Below are positions 38,916 to 46,402 of a stretch of 64,000 nt of DNA, piece by piece. The stretch is from Batrachochytrium dendrobatidis JAM81 (lineage: Eukaryota; Chytridiomycota; Chytridiomycetes; Rhizophydiales). How positions within the stretch are numbered: the stretch's first letter is position 1; the number at the start of each line of letters is the position of its first letter. The notes under the pieces were generated by a model. The model was given only the letters and a program-made list of their open reading frames with translations. It was not told the DNA's origin and made no database searches. The stretch is from the NCBI RefSeq assembly GCF_000203795.2, contig NW_006281110.1, forward strand, positions 556,494 to 620,493, written 5' to 3'. The position numbers were made by a program, and so were the translations under genes.

Positions 38916-39518
38916 CTATTGTTTTGCTACGAGACTGTGTACTCCATCGCCAATTTGTATAGTAATGACCCTGAATCCAAATATTAATTTCAGGTTAATT
39001 AATAGAGCACTTGGATATGTTTGAGTGAGAAACTCTGTGATTTTGCTTGTTTTTAGCTCCAGGTATGCCGATTCAGTTTCAAGCTCAACTTTGATTTTAA
39101 GCATTTGTTCTTCAAGGTTGGTAGATTTGACAGTTTGTTTTCCAAGACTAGGTTTAAGCAAGAGAAGTTTACTTCCGTGTTTTAAAGCACCATTGCTTTC
39201 CTGATATTTACGTGTCAACTGGATATGTTTTCTTTCTAGTTTAGTCATCCGCTTTTGTTGAGTGGTAGCCTTATTCTTTAACGATTCATATAACTGCATT
39301 TTGCTGTGATGATTACAAGTGTCTTTTGCATAGTCATGGATTAAATTTTCATGCCCAGATGCAAATATACGTTCGTCAGTTTGACCTACACCATTTGCAT
39401 ATAATATCTCCACAGTTACAGATCCAGTACTTGTAGTTTCAGTAGGGAGAATTGGTTTGGCGATAGTAACTGAGCAAACAAGCAGGATTGATGATAGTAC
39501 AGCGGTTGGTAGTTTCAT
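38916..39518 (-). CDS. Secreted family protein A (probably decayed C-terminus)
   Basis: Single-exon gene; start at the family Met (MKLPTAVLSSILL), not the longer frame from 39557. Signal peptide of about 20 residues ending TIAKP, then ~180 polar residues: EILYANGVGQTDERIF, a Lys/Gln-rich helical part (KKNATTQQKRMTKLERK-like, 39200-39300) and a short hydrophobic end. No domain recognised. Downstream of its stop, 38775-38870 still matches the coding end of gene E (FNSQG.FKFMN) but with a lost base and stops, so the original C-terminus has been lost. The shared signal peptide and promoter with neighbours define a family of rapidly diverging secreted proteins. Function unknown. Confidence 0.75.
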   Translation of the reverse strand: MKLPTAVLSSILLVCSVTIAKPILPTETTSTGSVTVEILYANGVGQTDERIFASGHENLIHDYAKDTCNHHSKMQLYESLKNKATTQQKRMTKLERKHIQLTRKYQESNGALKHGSKLLLLKPSLGKQTVKSTNLEEQMLKIKVELETESAYLELKTSKITEFLTQTYPSALLINLKLIFGFRVITIQIGDGVHSLVAKQ

Positions 39519-39848
39519 TTTACTGGTTTGGTTAGGCAAGTTGTGGATGATTATCATTCAACAGGCCGAGTTTGGATGGTATTTATATTGGTTATTGAGC
39601 GGATAATATTAAAAAGCATACTGAATGACCGTTTAAAAAACCTGTGTTGTTAGAGCTAATGAAGATGCATTGCTATCAATGTCAAACTCAAAAGATCTCC
39701 CTTTATATGACAATTCGCAATTTGCTTGAACCGCTGCTTAATTATGCATCCAAACCTTGTATGGTTGATTATGCAGTTTCCCACCCTTATTTACCCCCAA
39801 AAGGGTCAGTGAGCCACAGCCTAGGAAATAAGTATAAACCAAAACTTT
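39519..39848 (-). promoter_or_regulatory. Conserved promoter module of the secreted family (type copy)
   Basis: Shared 5' flank of all secreted genes. Reading toward the gene: CCTAGGCTGTGGCTCACTGA, then CCCTTTTGGGGGTAAATAAG with GGGTGGGAAACTGC, then CGGTTCAAGC, then GTCATATAAAGGGAGATC, a TATAAATAC box near 39580-39588, and finally AACTTGCCTAACCAAACCAG just before the ATG. Equivalent modules lie at about 44225-44568, 46403-46727, 48508-48862, 50650-50983, 60217-60562 and 63176-63532. High conservation of the core across copies suggests shared regulation. Confidence 0.65.
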
Positions 39849-40628
39849 ATGCAACTGAGCTGATATTCAGTTATTAGTTGTTCATCAATGGATTCAATCA
39901 ATAAACTAAATTAATACAATCCAGTTCATATTGTAACCACAATGTCACATTGATGATCAGTGACTTGCAACTGTTGTGTTGGCATTGCATGTTGTGTTAC
40001 TATATCAACATCGATTGTCACTATATAGCTGTATCAATCACACATCATGATCATATGTCATGGTTGACTTGTATTCTGGATTGATGTACACATTGTATTG
40101 TATTGCATCACTCGAACACGAACACGAACTTTGTATGACTCGTTGAGCAACTTGTTCAATAACTCGTTGTATGACTCGTATATACACTGCAATTGGATCC
40201 AGTCACTCGACATTACAACATGATCCACATACAACCTGATTGTGATGGTGGTTGTCGATCTGATTGTCGTGTCGGTATATATGTCGAGTATGTACATCCG
40301 AGTGATCAAGCCATACATGTATATGCACACAATACATACAATACACACCAGTTGCGTTGATCAGCATGTGTCAACTGGTCAATATTGTCAACCTGGTTAT
40401 ACACGCACTTGACATGTACATCTGGACAGTGATCATTGTACAATCCAGACTGTTGTGCAAACCATATATGACCAGTCATGTCAAGTATCCAATCAAACAT
40501 CCAGTCATGAATACAGCCAGGAATACAAACTCGGGTAGTCCGAGTATCGATCAACAACTGCAATCGATATCAAACTATCGTGCACAATCGATTGTAATCC
40601 ACATCAGTTATAGTCAATCACACATGTC
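39849..40628. repeat. Conserved array block, copy 2 (split by the TIR element)
   Basis: Same block as copy 1. It ends at 40628 in ...CACACATGTC, where a 2,615-bp element is inserted; the block resumes at 43244 (CATGTCACACATGTCATGG). Removing the element and one CATGTC restores exactly the sequence of copy 3 at 45330-45360. Confidence 0.95.
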
Positions 40629-40734
40629 AGTAGTATAGATAGGGCACCGAATGATACCGTTTTTCTTGGCAGATGCTCTCTGCTAAAAGGTGTACAAAGT
40701 GTTTAAAGTTGATCTCGCCTGTGGCAGGTGACTT
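40629..40734 (+). repeat. Left terminal inverted repeat
   Basis: 106 bp from AGTAGTATAG to GGCAGGTGACTT. Inverse match to 43137-43243 with roughly 85% identity. The longest exact shared stretches are GGCACCGAATGATACC, CTGCTAAAAG and GCCTGTGGCAGGTGACTT. Confidence 0.93.
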
Positions 40735-40900
40735 TTGACAAAATGCTATGGGCGATTAATGCCAAATATGATGGGTTGTAGTCAGTGCTATATTCAAACC
40801 AATATTTGTCTCTTATTTATTCCAACCCAAATGAATTTTTATTATCAGAACTAGTAACTAACTTCCAAGGTTAATTTGAAGTAATAATCACCACGAATCA

Positions 40901-41352
40901 TCATCTGATTGTAAAAAGTCCAGCTACAATTCCAATGAACAGGGCTGACATACCAATGGGAGATAGGAGAAAGCTGCCCATCATGGCTGATTGAAGCATG
41001 GCATATAGACTGCCTGAAACAACACCGACTCCATTGGCCAACGCAATAGATGACATTCACTGGGCAGCAATGCTACCAGCAGCAATTCCAGTTGTAGTAA
41101 AGCCAATTGACATCAGGAATGTCCAAGTAAGACCAACAGAAAAGCCCGGCGCCAAATGTCCTTAAAACATCCTGAAGTAGTCAAGGGTTGTTATGTTCAC
41201 CCAAGAAGGTGACGCTAACCGTTTGAATGTTTTGAAGGCCGTCTGACTCGTCTTTCAGTATAGTTCCTTCATGAGATATAACAATTCTTTCAAATGGGAA
41301 CTGTAAGGAATTAGAGAGCCTTTCCCTTGACTGAGTTATAGTTTCATTGGCA
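40901..41352 (-). pseudogene. ISG12 (IFI6/IFI27)-like protein gene, broken by an in-frame stop
   Basis: On the minus strand one frame reads MSIGFTTTGIAAGSIAA, then Q, then TGA (41057-41059), then MSSIALANGVGVVSGSLYAM and LQSAMMGSFLLSPIGMS. This Gly/Ala-rich hydrophobic pattern is the interferon-induced 6-16 (ISG12) family fold (GIAAGSIAA..MMS...ANGGGV). Upstream, past a possible short intron (about 41157-41200), the frame continues as QFPFERIVISHEGTILKDE toward 41352. The family encodes small membrane proteins of mitochondria/ER in animals and occurs in diverse eukaryotes. The single TGA inside the conserved core makes this copy a pseudogene unless read through. It lies inside the TIR element. 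Confidence 0.6.
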
Positions 41353-41412
41353 GCATTGAAATTAATTTCAAGTGTTCATGGCGAAGTTGTCAAAATTTTC
41401 CAAATCAGACAA

Positions 41413-41955
41413 ATGGACAGACCAAGCGATGACCCTTCACCAACCACCAGCGACAGCAGTGGACACTCACTCATGGACGCTCCTGGGTACATCAAGCCTG
41501 ACCTCCAAGACTTGCTGTTGACCGACATTACTGCCAAAGAACTACGAGTCATTGCCGAGACTATGGAAGTCGACTACTTGGGACCAGCAGTCTTTCCAGG
41601 AACATTTCCAGCCATGGGAAACATCAAGGGTCAGAACTACCGACTCATGGTCCCATTGGTCTGTCGCCGCCGAACAACAAAGGATGTTCCTTCTGTCAAC
41701 ATCATTTTTTTGATTGATACAGGCTCTCCAGTCACATACCTTTGCCACGAAGCTATGGAAGTATTGATTGGGAAGGACTCTCACCTGCCTCAATCACTCT
41801 ATGTCAAAATCCACAGTGAAGAAGCTATTGAAGCCCACCTTTCCCCCAAGGGCAGTCATTTTGCTGATGTGAATGTGTTGGGAATGGATTTTCTTGCCAA
41901 GAACAGAGTGTTTCCCATTCCCGATTGGACGAATGGAACATTTATTCTTCAATAA
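41413..41955 (+). CDS. Retropepsin-like aspartyl protease-domain protein
   Basis: Intact 180-residue ORF inside the TIR element; the true ATG is 41413 (MDRPSDDPSPTTSD). After a Ser/Pro/Asp-rich lead and DLLLTDITAKELRVIAE, it has the catalytic motif IIFLIDTGSPVTYLCHEAME (D-T-G) and the second retropepsin landmark DVNVLGMDFLAKN, the hydrophobic-hydrophobic-Gly element, spaced about 65 residues later. This is a single-lobed, retroviral/Ddi1-type protease that would work as a dimer. No reverse transcriptase, integrase or gag lies beside it, unlike an LTR retrotransposon. The stop overlaps an AATAAA. It is the only undamaged gene in the element, which suggests recent arrival or selection. Substrate unknown. 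Confidence 0.75.
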   Translation: MDRPSDDPSPTTSDSSGHSLMDAPGYIKPDLQDLLLTDITAKELRVIAETMEVDYLGPAVFPGTFPAMGNIKGQNYRLMVPLVCRRRTTKDVPSVNIIFLIDTGSPVTYLCHEAMEVLIGKDSHLPQSLYVKIHSEEAIEAHLSPKGSHFADVNVLGMDFLAKNRVFPIPDWTNGTFILQ

Positions 41956-42050
41956 AACCACTTCGACTTTGCAGGTGTAAAACAGTCTCGCACATGTATA
42001 ATTCTATTTGAATAGTCAGTGCTTAGTGGGGAGGTTTCTGTGATTCGCTA

Positions 42051-42101
42051 GAAGGTTCCACAACATTCCAGAACCTTCCAATGGCGTCTCGACTATAAAA
42101 A
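42051..42101 (+). promoter_or_regulatory. Heat-shock element array with TATA box
   Basis: GAAggTTC at 42051-42058 and TTCcaGAAccTTC at 42066-42078 match alternating nGAAn units of an HSF site. A TATA box TATAAAAA follows at 42094-42101, with the next ATG at 42141, a normal spacing for a promoter. No other such arrangement was noticed in this window. It lies inside the TIR element. Confidence 0.6.
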
Positions 42102-42140
42102 GCGCAACTGCCTGTTTAAAACACTTCCAACAACTTGCGC

Positions 42141-42304
42141 ATGAGTGAATATGATCGGTTTGCCGACTGGGTCAAGGAGCAACGCAGGTGTCCAAAAGAT
42201 GCCTTGGAAACAACAATCAACCAAATTGACATCAAATTTGTGCGATCATGAAGGAAATGGACCAGTTCAATGAGAACACCAGAAGCTGCCAAGAAAACAG
42301 ACAC
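42141..42304 (+). pseudogene. Small ORF behind the heat-shock promoter, frame-disrupted
   Basis: From ATG 42141 the frame reads MSEYDRFADWVKEQRRCPKD and on to FVRS, stopping at about 42249-42251. The neighbouring frame continues with coding-like MKEMDQFNENTRSCQENRH to a stop near 42304. Read together they suggest one small acidic, helical protein of about 55 residues with a frame error. Family unknown. Confidence 0.35.
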
Positions 42305-42537
42305 TGAAAAGTCTAAATCATTTTTATTGAAATGCTACACTACGACACCAATGTATCGTTGTATCTACTTGTTAATAATAAAACACGTTGATTGTTTCTA
42401 ATGCTGTTTTGAATGTGGATCTTCGCTTTCTTTAGGGAATCTGATTAACAAATAGTATTCTATAGCGTTTCCTTTTTTCATCAAATTAAAATATCAATTA
42501 CAATTAATTATTTTCAATAATTAATGTATAACCATTT

Positions 42538-43157
42538 ATGACTGAAATTGATGTTACTTTTCGAATGAACAGTGAAAACACGTGTCCAATATGCTATTCA
42601 ACTATTACCACACCATTAATTCAATGCCATAACGCATTACATTTTGTCTGTTTGACTTACTTTAAAAAGTGCCGTAGAAAAGGCTATTGTGCGCAATGTC
42701 AGCCAAGCAGAATGTTTCATAACAAGCTTCTCGAGAAAACCATCAAAAATCAAATGAGAGCGTGTATGAATGAAGGATGTACATTACTACTATTTCCTTG
42801 GGACAATGAGCATGAAAAAGAGTGCCGATTTAAACAAAGTGTCAATTTTGCGATGGCATGATTTCAAAAGCATCGATCAAACAACATTTTAAAGACTGTC
42901 AAGTACCATGGATAATCGATTCCGAATTAAATAAAGGTTCATCATCTATGACAGAATACTGTCGCAAGTCAAGCAAAGGTTTCCAAATAGAGATGGATTC
43001 GATGAAAAAGTCATTTGTTGTTATAAGAAGTGACCAGGTGATAACATTCAAAAGGAATGGGAGCAATTACGACATGAAAATAACACAATTGAACAATGAT
43101 TCCACACGAACAGAGGTTACTTATTGGCTTCCGAATAAGTCACCTGCCACAGGCTAG
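42538..43157 (+). pseudogene. SIAH-like RING/zinc-finger E3 ligase, frameshifted and lacking a zinc ligand
   Basis: Two overlapping frames, 42538-42861 and 42858-43157. The first encodes a seven-in-absentia-type RING: CPICYSTITTPLIQC, HFVC, then Tyr where the sixth zinc-binding Cys is expected, then YCAQC; then the SIAH finger start RACMNEGCTLLLF and HEKEC. The second frame supplies the following finger CQFCDGMISKASIKQHFKDC. Joining them needs a -1 shift near 42835-42845; no GT-AG intron fits. The rest (DSMKKSFVVIRSDQVITFK) is reminiscent of the beta-rich SIAH substrate domain, shortened. The final codons run into the right TIR. A degraded cargo gene is the best reading; programmed frameshifting is less likely. 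Confidence 0.65.
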
Positions 43158-43243
43158 ATCAACTTTTAGATACTTTGGGCAACTTTTAGCAGGGAACATC
43201 AGCCAAGATAAGTGGTATCATTCGGTGCCTTATCTATACTACT
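43137..43243 (-). repeat. Right terminal inverted repeat
   Basis: 107 bp, inverse of 40629-40734, ending ...GGTGCCTTATCTATACTACT. Followed directly by the target duplication CATGTC. Confidence 0.93.
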
Positions 43244-43378
43244 CATGTCACACATGTCATGGTGTATGTATATCCAATGTCAAATTACGATTATATTTTA
43301 TTGTAAATTAAATCAGAATGACAGTTGAAACAGTTGAGCCAGATCAGATTAGAATTCAAATCAGTTGGATCAATCGTA

Positions 43379-44224
43379 TTAATTCTCACGTCTGATTTGC
43401 TTCAAGAGTAAGTCAGCTCCATCATTAAATTTAAAAGCAGCATTTCGTAAACCAGAAAAGATCATTTGCCCAAAGGAACGAGATTCAGATGGTATTACTG
43501 ATGATGGTTGTGAATCTTGTTCTTGTTGCTCTTGCTGTTGCTGTTGCTCTTGTTGTTGCTCTTGCTCTTGTTGTGGGGTTTGTTCAGCATCAGAATCTTG
43601 ACCATAACTATTTTTGCATTCTGGTGATGATCCAGTGACACATAGTTCTTGAAGATATTTCCTAACGACAGGATGTGAGTCGATACGCGAAAGTTGCTCA
43701 TCAAGTGGTCGAGAATCCCAAAGGCCTCCGAAAATATACTTTAGGAGTTTCACTCTGAGAATATTCAGTTCACGAAGCAGAAGATCACAGTGAGTATTGC
43801 ATTTCTTTTCTGATTTTTCAAGCTTGACAAGTATGGAACGCTCGCTCTGAAGATTACGCTCAGCCTTCTGAAGTTTAGCATTGTATCTTAGATCGCCATT
43901 GTTTTTCAAAAGTGCATTTTTGGACTTGACAGCTTTTATTTCCAGATGTTTTACTTGTTTCTGCTGACTATAAGATTCAGTCTCTATTTCTTCGCATGTT
44001 GCTTTTTGATTATTATAACTACGTTGTTTTTTTACGACTTTTCTGAGCAAATTCTTCATGTCAACTGAAAGTGAATCAAGACTACCCAAGTCTATGCTGT
44101 TTGTATTAGGAGTTGTAGAGGGGTTGGACTGGGTACTTGTAGCCTTACTGGAACGGATCGGTTTGGCGATAGTAACTGAACAAATAAGCAGGATTGATGA
44201 CAGTACAGCAGTTGGTAGTTTCAT
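43379..44224 (-). CDS. Secreted family protein B (Glu/Gln-rich C-terminal tract)
   Basis: Single exon; start at the family Met (44224), which follows the conserved leader AACTTGCCTAACCAAACCAG. Signal peptide MKLPTAVLSSILL... ending TIAKP, then a Ser/Thr-rich linker (STQSNPSTTPNTNSIDLGSL), a long Lys/Glu coiled-coil-like region with conserved Cys (ATCEEIETESYSQQKQVKHL, KCNTHCDLLLREL), the segment GGLWDSRPLDEQLSRIDSH, then a CAA/GAA-encoded Gln/Glu tract (43500-43580) and an end with SRSFGQ and LLLKQIRREN. It is the close paralogue of D. No catalytic domain seen; extracellular, function unknown. Confidence 0.85.
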   Translation of the reverse strand: MKLPTAVLSSILLICSVTIAKPIRSSKATSTQSNPSTTPNTNSIDLGSLDSLSVDMKNLLRKVVKKQRSYNNQKATCEEIETESYSQQKQVKHLEIKAVKSKNALLKNNGDLRYNAKLQKAERNLQSERSILVKLEKSEKKCNTHCDLLLRELNILRVKLLKYIFGGLWDSRPLDEQLSRIDSHPVVRKYLQELCVTGSSPECKNSYGQDSDAEQTPQQEQEQQQEQQQQQEQQEQDSQPSSVIPSESRSFGQMIFSGLRNAAFKFNDGADLLLKQIRREN

Positions 44225-44568
44225 TTTACTGGTTTGGTTAGGCAAGTTGTGAATAGTTTCGTTCAGCAGGCCGAGTTTAGATTGTATTTATGTCGGTTAT
44301 TGAGTGGATAATATTAAAAGAATATTGGATGACCGTCCTAAGGGATTGGTGTTGCTGGCAGGGTTGGTGTTGATTTGCTATCAATGCCAAACTTTGAAGG
44401 ACCTCCCTTTACATGAAGTCTGTAGTTTCTTGGTTAAACCGCTGTTTGGCTATACATCAAATATAGCTGATTGATTATGCAGTTTCCCACCCTTATTCAC
44501 CCCCAAAAGGGTCAGTGAGCCACAGCCTAGGAAATAAGCACAGTCCATGTAAACATACATAGCTATAT

Positions 44569-45370
44569 GCAACTGAGCTGATATTCAGTTATTAGTTGTT
44601 CATCAATGGATTCAATCAATCAATTGAATCAATACAATACAGTTCATGTTGCAACCACAATGTCACATTGATGATCAATGACTTGCAGCTGTTGTGTTGG
44701 CATTTCATGTTGTGTTACTATATCAATATCGATTGTCGCTATATAGTTGTATCAATCACACATCATGATCATATGTCATGGTTGACTCGTATTCTGGATT
44801 GATGTACACATTGTATTGTATTGCATCACTCGAACACGAACACGAACTTTGTATGACTCGTTGAGCAGCTTGTTCAATAACTCGTTGTATGACTCGTATA
44901 TACACTGCAATTGGATCCAGTCACTCGACATTACAACACTGTCCACATACAACCTGATTGTGATGGTGGTTGTCGATCTGATTGTCGTGTCGATATGTAT
45001 GTCGAGTATGTACATCCGAGTGATCAAGCCATACATGTATATGCACACAATACATACAATACACACCAGTTGCATTGATCAGCATGTGTCAACTGGTCAA
45101 TATCGTCAACCTGGTTATACACGCACTTGACATGTATATCTGGACAGTGATCATTGTACAATCCAGGCTGTTGTGCAAACCATATATGACCAGTCATGTC
45201 AAGTATCCAATCAAATATCCAGTCATGAATACAACTAGGAATACAAACTCGGGTAGTCCGAGTATCGATCAACAACTGCAATCGATATCAAACTACCATG
45301 TACAATCGATTGCAGTCCATACCAGTTATAGTCAATCACACATGTCACACATGTCATGGTGTATGTATAT
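44569..45370. repeat. Conserved array block, copy 3
   Basis: Uninterrupted copy, with ACACAATACATACAATACAC before the CACATGTC tract. It shows the empty insertion site of the TIR element at about 45338-45355. Confidence 0.9.
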
Positions 45371-45604
45371 TTAACGTCAAATGATAATCAAAGTTTATTG
45401 TAAATTAAATCAAAATGATAGTTGAAACAGTTGAGCCAGATCAGATTAGAATTCAAATCAATTGGATCAATTGTATTGATTGATACGCCTCTTGATTAAA
45501 ATATGATGACCCCATCGTTGAATCTGGAAAAGTTTTTTGTAAATTGAAAAAACTCCAGATATTTTCACCAATGTCAGATATTTAATATTAAGATATTAAT
45601 AACC

Positions 45605-46402
45605 TTATCGTCGAGCACCAGGATATTGATAGCTCTGTCGCCAAGCACCGGGATATTGATAACCTTGTCGCCAAGTGCCAGGATATTGATAGCTCTGTTG
45701 TCGAGAACCAGGATATTGATAGCCCTGTTGTCGAGCACCAGGATATTGATAGCCCTGTTGTCGAGAACCAGGATATTGATAGCCTTGTCGTCGAGCACCA
45801 GAATATTGAGAACTTTGTTGTGGTGGTCGACTAGCAAATTCCTTTTCAAATTCGCGGATGCAATTCAAAATTGTGGGGTTTGATTCGAGGAGTGTCATAC
45901 GAGAATTCACTAGTTTGCTATTTGAAGCTCCCCCGAAAAAGTGATTCACAAGGTTGTTTCGTTCCTGATTCACTGCCGAAGATGACAATCTATAATAGTA
46001 ATTAGACTTACTAGACTGTTCTTTAAGTTTGGAGAGAATGAAATATTGTTCACTAAGCTCGTGATTTGGATTGGCACTGATTTCCCAAGATCTACTTTGA
46101 AAGCGTTTAGGGTCCTCACCCAGCCCAATTAATAGGTTTGCCTGAGCATTATACACAGATTGTACCAAGCCGTGTAGTTTGCTTGCCTTTTTATGGTACT
46201 CTTTTTTTGCTACAAAGGTTTTGATAACAGACCTATCACGGGTTGAAAGCGAGTTAATGCCAGCTAATCCTGCATCTCGTGCACTATGACCTGTTGAAAT
46301 TTTAGGCACAGTGCTTATAGTTGTAATGGGAGGGGCTGGTTTAGCTGTAGTAACTGAGCAAGTAAGCAGGATTGATGACAATACAGCGGTTGATAGTTTC
46401 AT
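45605..46402 (-). CDS. Secreted family protein C (GYQYPG decapeptide repeats)
   Basis: Single exon; family Met at 46402. Signal peptide MKLSTAVLSSILL... ending TTAKP. The mature part (SARDAGLAGINSLSTRDRSV, SKLHGLVQSVYNAQANLL) differs almost wholly from B and D, but keeps FFGGASNSKLVNSRMTLLES, resembling GGLWDSRPL...RIDS at the same place. The C-terminus is seven to eight copies of a roughly ten-residue repeat of the type RQQGYQYPGA (45605-45800), an aromatic/Gly/Pro-rich, probably disordered tail. The repeat units are nearly identical at DNA level, so they expanded recently. Function unknown. Confidence 0.83.
   Translation of the reverse strand: MKLSTAVLSSILLTCSVTTAKPAPPITTISTVPKISTGHSARDAGLAGINSLSTRDRSVIKTFVAKKEYHKKASKLHGLVQSVYNAQANLLIGLGEDPKRFQSRSWEISANPNHELSEQYFILSKLKEQSSKSNYYYRLSSSAVNQERNNLVNHFFGGASNSKLVNSRMTLLESNPTILNCIREFEKEFASRPPQQSSQYSGARRQGYQYPGSRQQGYQYPGARQQGYQYPGSRQQSYQYPGTWRQGYQYPGAWRQSYQYPGARR

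What the first reader, a model, noticed from the sequence alone, without database searches (positions are those of the whole stretch)
40629..43243. Gene-carrying TIR element with a provable empty site
The sequence shows imperfect inverted repeats of about 106 bp, a perfect 6-bp target duplication (CATGTC) and, in the sister block at about 45338-45355, the uninterrupted target. The element has no transposase but holds pieces of unrelated cellular-type genes (retropepsin, ISG12-like, SIAH-like, heat-shock promoter). The AG terminus and 6-bp TSD recall Maverick/Polinton ends, yet core genes are absent. It may be a previously undescribed non-autonomous cargo element mobilised by another element's machinery.
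Basis: partly seen in the sequence, partly recalled or inferred. Interest (0 to 1): 0.88.

Follow-up and report, generated by a model that had tools for sequence, protein, structure and literature searches.

The report
Stripped-down Maverick transposon carrying protease gene
A 2.6-kb piece of mobile DNA in the frog-killing chytrid fungus shares its ends with larger elements that carry a DNA polymerase and an integrase, so it is best read as a shortened, gene-carrying dependent of that virus-like family.

Summary
Window 40629-43243 is a 2,615-bp element with ~106-bp inverted repeats (87% identical), a perfect 6-bp target duplication (CATGTC) and an uninterrupted empty site in the sister block. 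The genome is Batrachochytrium dendrobatidis, most likely JAM81. The 31-base terminus recurs at 84 sites (reversed control 0). Between such ends lie elements of 0.27 to 12.7 kb or more; the 12.7-kb one has open B-family DNA polymerase and retroviral-type integrase frames, as in Maverick/Polinton transposons. Caveat: the coding members tested show no target duplication; the good ones belong to members without integrase. The cargo is not random: retropepsin, the promoter/5' piece of a family gene and a RING gene recur elsewhere in the family. The retropepsin gene is open, under purifying selection, with 107 database relatives. Packaging ATPase was not found in the genome, nor Ulp1-type protease near listed ends; capsids were not tested. 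In passing: 17 of 36 Crinkler-header-like hits lie within 1.5 kb inside such an end (0.27 expected). Mavericks are already reported as common in this species; a dependent form with this cargo was not found in my searches.

The parts
40623..40628 (.). left target site duplication CATGTC
40629..40734 (+). left terminal inverted repeat (first 31 bases are the family terminus)
40904..41161 (-). ISG12-like (Ifi-6-16) gene, broken by one in-frame stop into two pieces, 41060-41161 and 40904-41056
   Evidence: E 1.9e-5 and 6.2e-6, both below Pfam's cut-off
41413..41955 (+). retropepsin-like aspartic protease gene, 180 aa, open (IDTGSP and VLGMDF motifs)
   Evidence: open frame; 107 relatives; fold; dN/dS 0.27 and 0.15 against two other copies in the genome
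42052..42251 (+). promoter-like stretch plus first ~35 codons of a family gene (MSEYDRFADWVKEQRR...), truncated
   Evidence: of 9 short matches to this stretch, five (C27, C32, C11, C1, C21) lie 1,589-1,615 bp from an integrase hit
42538..42861 (+). SIAH/Sina-like RING frame, 107 aa
   Evidence: Sina_RING E 5e-4, below cut-off; copies inside the C1, C26 and C3 elements, and beside an end in C3 and C33
42858..43157 (+). second frame continuing the RING gene (C-terminal part), offset by a frame change; a similar frame change is seen in the C1 and C26 copies
43137..43243 (-). right terminal inverted repeat
43244..43249 (.). right target site duplication CATGTC
45341..45346 (.). uninterrupted target (empty site) in the sister block

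Best explanation
The element is a non-autonomous, internally deleted member of a large family of PolB-integrase (Maverick/Polinton-type) elements in Batrachochytrium dendrobatidis. It kept the ends that the family's integrase would recognise, plus a small gene block (ISG12-like, retropepsin, promoter and 5' piece of a family gene, RING). It was inserted into one of two sister blocks after they duplicated, by an integrase supplied in trans, making a 6-bp target duplication. Shown: ends, duplication, empty site, copies of the ends, and PolB and integrase between such ends elsewhere. Inferred: that this integrase acted on this element, and that the core genes were lost before this insertion.
For: (1) Terminus at 84 sites, 0 in control; 196 sites with a looser pattern, 0 in control (100 listed). 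(2) Element C12:718657-731350, with both ends of the family, holds an open 828-aa PolB frame (PF03175 E 1.8e-9; 456 homologs, the 120 listed including echinoderm, amphioxus, mollusc and Phytophthora proteins) and a 345-aa integrase frame (rve). C3:445205-455872 holds PolB pieces and a 228-aa integrase frame. (3) Of 31 rve hits (27 over Pfam's cut-off), 14 of the 18 with frames up to 345 aa lie within 12 kb on the inner side of a terminus, against 3 of the 13 with longer, LTR-type frames (split by frame length made after seeing the list; 116 termini used). (4) Of 28 inward-facing combinations up to 16 kb among those 116 termini, flanks of 23 were held: 3 have a 6/6 duplication and 3 have 5/6 (by chance six or more such in 23 is about 1e-9, binomial worked by hand; one search gives 5e-11 for the 15 first chosen). 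Mavirus and Maverick/Polinton elements make 5-6 bp duplications (PMC8547959, passage). (5) Cargo recurs: retropepsin in C21 (827 bp from a terminus) and inside the 1,605-bp C31 element with its own 6/6 duplication; RING inside C1, C26 and C3; the 5' piece 1.6 kb from an integrase in 5 of 9 loci.
Against: 17 of the 23 combinations examined have 4/6 or fewer, among them those that hold PolB and integrase in C12 (0/6) and C3 (2/6), and C27:1148224-1162917 (0/6), which holds an integrase; the six with 5/6 or 6/6 show no integrase hit. Some of the 23 are wrong pairings, since one end was tried with several partners. At C12 the outer flanks are inverted copies of each other for about 860 bp. The exact 2.6-kb arrangement occurs only once in the genome, so repeated movement of this form is not shown. 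The longest relative by left end (C1:2527331, 75% over 180 bp) has no integrase hit. Many of the 84 sites are not independent insertions: eleven copies belong to one group, most of it in one larger repeat, others look like subtelomeric duplicates. Packaging ATPase (PF04665) gave no hit in the genome and Ulp1 protease (PF02902) none near listed termini, so strict Maverick membership is not met.
Confidence: 0.85

Rival explanations
1. A full-length Maverick-type element inserted here and later lost its core genes by internal deletion at this site; it never moved in its short form. (A variant of the best explanation: same family, different timing.)
For: This arrangement is single-copy; two of its genes are broken or truncated; the two inverted repeats differ by 13%.
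Against: Other short members have perfect or near-perfect duplications (C31 1.6 kb, C5 1.2 kb, C33 0.27 kb), so short forms seem to move. The retropepsin-5' piece order is shared with the C21 locus. No PolB or integrase remnant in this element: tblastx against the C12 and C3 core genes gave no hit at E 0.01, while the decayed C1 copy gave strong hits.
Confidence: 0.3
2. A cut-and-paste transposon of another superfamily (for example Ginger2) with coincidental ends.
For: Ginger2 has an integrase-like transposase and a 6-bp target (PMC2836005, passages). Coding members tested here lack a duplication, so the link between these ends and PolB rests on position alone.
Against: Ginger2 ends follow TGTNR and its target is RTATAY; here the ends are AGTAG and the target CATGTC. 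The integrase frames lie beside PolB frames in C12, C3 and C27.
Confidence: 0.05
3. Not a mobile element: a host gene block bounded by chance inverted repeats.
For: It holds cellular-type genes.
Against: Empty site and perfect duplication; 84 copies of the ends against 0 in control.
Confidence: 0.01

Closest known systems
Maverick/Polinton self-synthesising transposons
   Same: Inverted repeats; 6-bp target duplication; AG...CT ends (recalled); relatives with the same ends encode B-family DNA polymerase and retroviral-type integrase
   Different: This element is 2.6 kb and has neither gene. No packaging ATPase or Ulp1-type protease was found for the family, and no capsid gene was recognised in the frames scanned (capsids not specifically tested)
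Maverick-type DNA transposons already annotated in B. dendrobatidis JEL423 (PMC11797018, passages seen)
   Same: Same species and class; named there with Mutator and Cacta as the commonest DNA transposons
   Different: The passages I saw name the class only; no dependent form, ends or cargo are described in them
Truncated EMALE virophages of Cafeteria that keep inverted repeats (PMC8547959, passage)
   Same: Shortened virus-like elements that keep their ends
   Different: Different host and lineage (virophage)
Ginger2 DNA transposons
   Same: Gypsy-like integrase, 6-bp target
   Different: Ends TGTNR and target RTATAY (PMC2836005); not described there with PolB in the passages seen

Membership tests
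Maverick/Polinton | terminal inverted repeats | tested here: met
Maverick/Polinton | 5-6 bp target duplication | tested here: met
   6/6 for this element. For the family mixed: of 23 combinations examined 3 are 6/6, 3 are 5/6, 17 are 4/6 or fewer, the PolB-plus-integrase pairs C12 and C3 among the 17
Maverick/Polinton | AG...CT termini (recalled feature) | tested here: met
   AGTAGTAT...ATACTACT
Maverick/Polinton | encodes protein-primed B-family DNA polymerase | tested here: not met
   Not in this element (tblastx); present between the same ends in C12 and in pieces in C3 and C1. The 828-aa C12 frame is shorter than most full-query homologs (947-1,339 aa), so part may lie in other frames. Protein priming not tested
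Maverick/Polinton | encodes retroviral-type integrase | tested here: not met
   Not in this element; present in C12 and C3
Maverick/Polinton | packaging ATPase | tested here: not met
   PF04665: 0 hits in the whole genome at E 0.01; a divergent ATPase could be missed
Maverick/Polinton | Ulp1-type cysteine protease | tested here: not met
   PF02902: 4 hits at two loci (C10:115.7-116.5 kb, C5:555.7 kb), none near a listed terminus
Maverick/Polinton | major and minor capsid genes | not tested
   No capsid model was searched for on its own; 36 frames from the window and family loci scanned against Pfam gave no capsid hit, but not every frame was scanned
Non-autonomous derivative of a PolB-integrase (Maverick-type) family | ends shared with coding members of the same genome | tested here: met
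Non-autonomous derivative of a PolB-integrase (Maverick-type) family | mobilised in trans by that integrase | not testable with these tools
   inferred only
Ginger2 | TGTNR ends and RTATAY target | tested here: not met
   ends AGTAG, target CATGTC

The most novel reading that the evidence does not exclude
Chytrids carry a lineage of capsid-less PolB-integrase elements whose full and dependent forms spread a gene pool: a conserved retropepsin family, RING proteins and Crinkler-type genes. On this reading much of the Crinkler expansion in B. dendrobatidis is transposon cargo rather than host gene duplication.
Probability: 0.33. Interest if true: 0.8.

Novelty: new variant of a known kind. Interest (0 to 1): 0.52.

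Why it matters
It shows with an empty site that a short, gene-carrying element with Maverick-family ends inserted in this fungus, and gives a 30-bp end sequence with which the whole family can be counted. Through these ends one can test whether the large accessory gene families of the amphibian chytrid travel as transposon cargo, and whether Maverick-type elements can persist without packaging genes.

Tried and rejected
Horizontal transfer of the retropepsin gene: in a tree of 102 rows (100 of the 107 proteins found, plus the window copy and the C31 copy) the window copy falls in a 20-row set with Siphonaria, Rhizoclosmatium, Obelidium, Chytriomyces and B. salamandrivorans, without the other Bd copies, and it shares 91% identity over 78% of its length with a Chytriomyces confervae protein. 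The bootstrap had not settled, only 12 rows besides Bd bear names, the clustering of the Bd label is no better than shuffles (81 of 500 as low), and the closest named hit from another species (Siphonaria, 85%) is flagged as contaminated in its record. I do not claim transfer.

Relatives in viral contigs: two scans with the retropepsin (single sequence, then alignment) and one with the integrase gave no confirmed relative. A profile search of the retropepsin against PDB sequences gave 0 hits. The C12 PolB frame gave no Pfam hit by hmmscan at E 0.1 although the genome search with PF03175 scored it 39.3 bits; I rely on the latter, on motifs recognised from memory (DFETW, DANALYLW, DTDS) and on the homologs. 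I considered that the ISG12-like match at C33:629 kb was a second element: no listed terminus lies near it. I first compared 15 pairs chosen by eye; on checking I examined every inward-facing combination up to 16 kb whose flanks I held (23 of 28), which lowers the share with duplications, so I lowered confidence from 0.87 to 0.85 and raised the Ginger-type rival from 0.04 to 0.05.

Literature: 10 full-text searches. Six phrasings of 'non-autonomous Maverick/Polinton' gave 0 papers; preprints and most subscription journals are not held, so this is weak evidence of novelty. Eight papers were seen as passages only (PMC11797018, PMC12204190, PMC2836005, PMC10799480, PMC4046053, PMC8547959, PMC8647823, PMC5364385); none was read whole. 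'Transposons to toxins' (on Crinklers) was used as a search phrase; the paper itself was not seen and its content is recalled.

Full report
What was checked. The window is part of a 23.49-Mb genome in 33 contigs. Three contig lengths (1,564,682, 1,702,824 and 561,733) equal those of B. dendrobatidis JAM81 records returned with homologs, so the organism is B. dendrobatidis, most likely strain JAM81 (taxonomy). The element spans 40629-43243 (2,615 bp). Its inverted repeats are 106 and 107 bp, 86.9% identical. It is flanked by CATGTC on both sides, and removing one copy gives a match to the sister block that is gap-free at the junction, 93.5% over 970 columns. The insertion therefore followed the duplication of the blocks, or was lost precisely from one of them, which I judge less likely.

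The ends define a large family. The 31-base terminus occurs at 84 sites with up to 3 mismatches and never in the reversed control; a looser pattern gives 196 sites, control 0 (of which 100 were listed). These are sites, not insertions. Eleven loci with a close copy of the left end form one group: ten share the same outer flank, and of ten compared with the eleventh, seven align over 3.9-5.2 kb at about 95-97% and three over shorter stretches. Several other sites look like subtelomeric duplicates by position and flank. Among 116 termini typed from the two lists there are 28 inward-facing combinations up to 16 kb; flanks of 23 were held. Three have a 6/6 duplication (this one, C31 1,605 bp, C5 1,223 bp), three have 5/6 (C1 7.9 kb, C33 273 bp, C10 6.1 kb) and 17 have 4/6 or fewer. 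Some of the 17 are wrong pairings, because one end was tried with several partners. By chance six or more at 5/6 or better in 23 would have a probability of about 1e-9 (binomial by hand, treating combinations as independent; one search gives 5e-11 for the 15 pairs first chosen by eye).

Coding members. C12:718657-731350 has the same ends and holds an open 828-aa PolB frame and a 345-aa integrase frame. Most PolB homologs that cover 99% of the query are longer (947-1,339 aa), so part of the C12 gene may lie in other frames. The PolB has 456 homologs at E 1e-10; the 120 listed include echinoderm, amphioxus, mollusc and Phytophthora proteins, some with the PF03175 domain. The integrase has 213 homologs at E 1e-5. 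C3:445205-455872 holds PolB in several pieces and a 228-aa integrase frame; part of it reads N. The 7.9-kb C1 and C26 elements have split PolB-like frames (the C1 pieces match C12 PolB by tblastx), and the C1 copy an HNH frame recognised by Pfam. Over the genome, 14 of 18 rve hits with frames up to 345 aa lie within 12 kb on the inner side of a terminus, against 3 of 13 with longer frames (the split by frame length was made after seeing the list; 4 of the 31 hits, three of them among the 14, are under Pfam's cut-off). Against the reading: the C12, C3 and C27 pairs that hold an integrase show no duplication (0/6, 2/6, 0/6). PF04665 (packaging ATPase) gave no hit in the genome; PF02902 (Ulp1) gave four hits at two loci, away from the listed termini. 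In the parts tested, the family is thus PolB plus integrase without ATPase and Ulp1 protease; capsids were not tested.

The cargo. Element positions 786-1726 match C21 at 81% and positions 1424-2508 match C3 and C33 at 79% and 78%; together they cover retropepsin, the 5' piece and the RING gene in one overlapping order. The RING stretch also lies inside C1, C26 and the coding C3 element. The 5' piece, with a TATA-like box and conserved first codons, has 9 shorter matches in the genome; in five (C27, C32, C11, C1, C21) it lies 1,589-1,615 bp from an integrase hit. In C3 and C33 the long match lies just outside the nearest terminus, not inside it, so not every copy is within recognised ends. The retropepsin gene has four uninterrupted copies in the genome plus two fragments: this one, C21 (827 bp from a terminus), C31 (inside the 1,605-bp element, a fold-back with 492-bp arms) and C2 (no listed terminus nearby). 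dN/dS is 0.27 against C21 and 0.15 against C31; against C2 synonymous sites are saturated. The protein has 107 relatives among 144 candidates; the named ones are chytrids plus one zebra mussel protein. The best of five models has mean pLDDT 80.7, but two of the five only 51-53. The best solved match is a Rickettsia retropepsin (E 3e-4; 2 matches at or below 0.001; TM-score 0.38 on the query). The ISG12-like gene is broken by one in-frame stop. No PolB or integrase remnant was found in the element (tblastx).

Mechanism. Shown: ends, duplication, empty site, coding relatives with the same ends, recurrent cargo. Inferred: the family integrase inserts DNA with these ends and makes the 6-bp staggered cut; whether PolB copies the short form is unknown. 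Whether the core was lost before or after this insertion is open (about 0.7 to 0.3 in favour of before, because other short forms with good duplications exist).

Against known kinds. It would work like a dependent of a Maverick-type family, but it is not itself a Maverick: the defining genes are absent from it, and no packaging ATPase or Ulp1 protease was detected for the family. Maverick-type elements are reported as common in this species (PMC11797018, passages).

Crinkler link, seen in passing. The C12 element has a Crinkler-header-like frame just inside each end, and C3 has one inside its left end. The label rests on recalled motifs: Pfam did not recognise these frames, and a published study also failed to detect Bd Crinklers with PF20147 (PMC12204190, passage). 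A genome search with one C12 frame gave 36 hits; 17 lie within 1.5 kb inside a listed terminus (two of them the C12 query and its inverted copy), 5 within 1.5 kb outside, 0.27 expected at random for the inside. Several of the 17 look like duplicates of one another (four at 1,188-1,189 bp; the C1, C2 and C10 ones share an outer flank), so the independent number is smaller. Counts of Crinkler-like genes in Bd differ in print: 162 (PMC5364385, passage) and 106 (as cited in PMC12204190, passage).

Noticed in passing
L059:266-1678, L060:2697-3242, L082:500-1084, and 17 of 36 genome hits: Crinkler-header-like frames sit just inside the ends of these elements: 17 of 36 hits within 1.5 kb inside a listed terminus, 0.27 expected. 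Header identified by recalled motif; hits not all independent.
   Followed up: partly
L085/L086 (C12), L087/L088 (C1:2284477), L065/L066 (C10:220236): At some elements the flanks outside the two ends are inverted copies of each other (about 860 bp at C12, 221 bp at C1; only 14 bp looked at for C10). At C12 and C1 no direct duplication was seen at the outer edges. Unexplained.
   Followed up: partly
L018-L028: Eleven loci carry a close copy of the left end; ten share the same outer flank, and seven of the ten compared with the eleventh align over 3.9-5.2 kb at about 95-97%. They look like one insertion later amplified; L026 has a different flank.
   Followed up: partly
L011:2983-3447 (-): A glyoxalase-like gene (PF00903 E 6e-6) lies between the terminus and the retropepsin gene at C21, where the window element has the ISG12-like gene.
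   Followed up: no
L047/L079 (C31), L089 (C5), L090 (C15): Three short members are fold-backs with 330-589 bp arms over 98% identical.
   Followed up: partly
P0067: A relative of the retropepsin protein is annotated on a 107-Mb contig of the zebra mussel Dreissena polymorpha (52% identity).
   Followed up: no
window 38916-46402: Sister blocks in the window encode tandem paralogs with a signal-peptide-like start (MKLPTAVLSSILL...), by reading.
   Followed up: no
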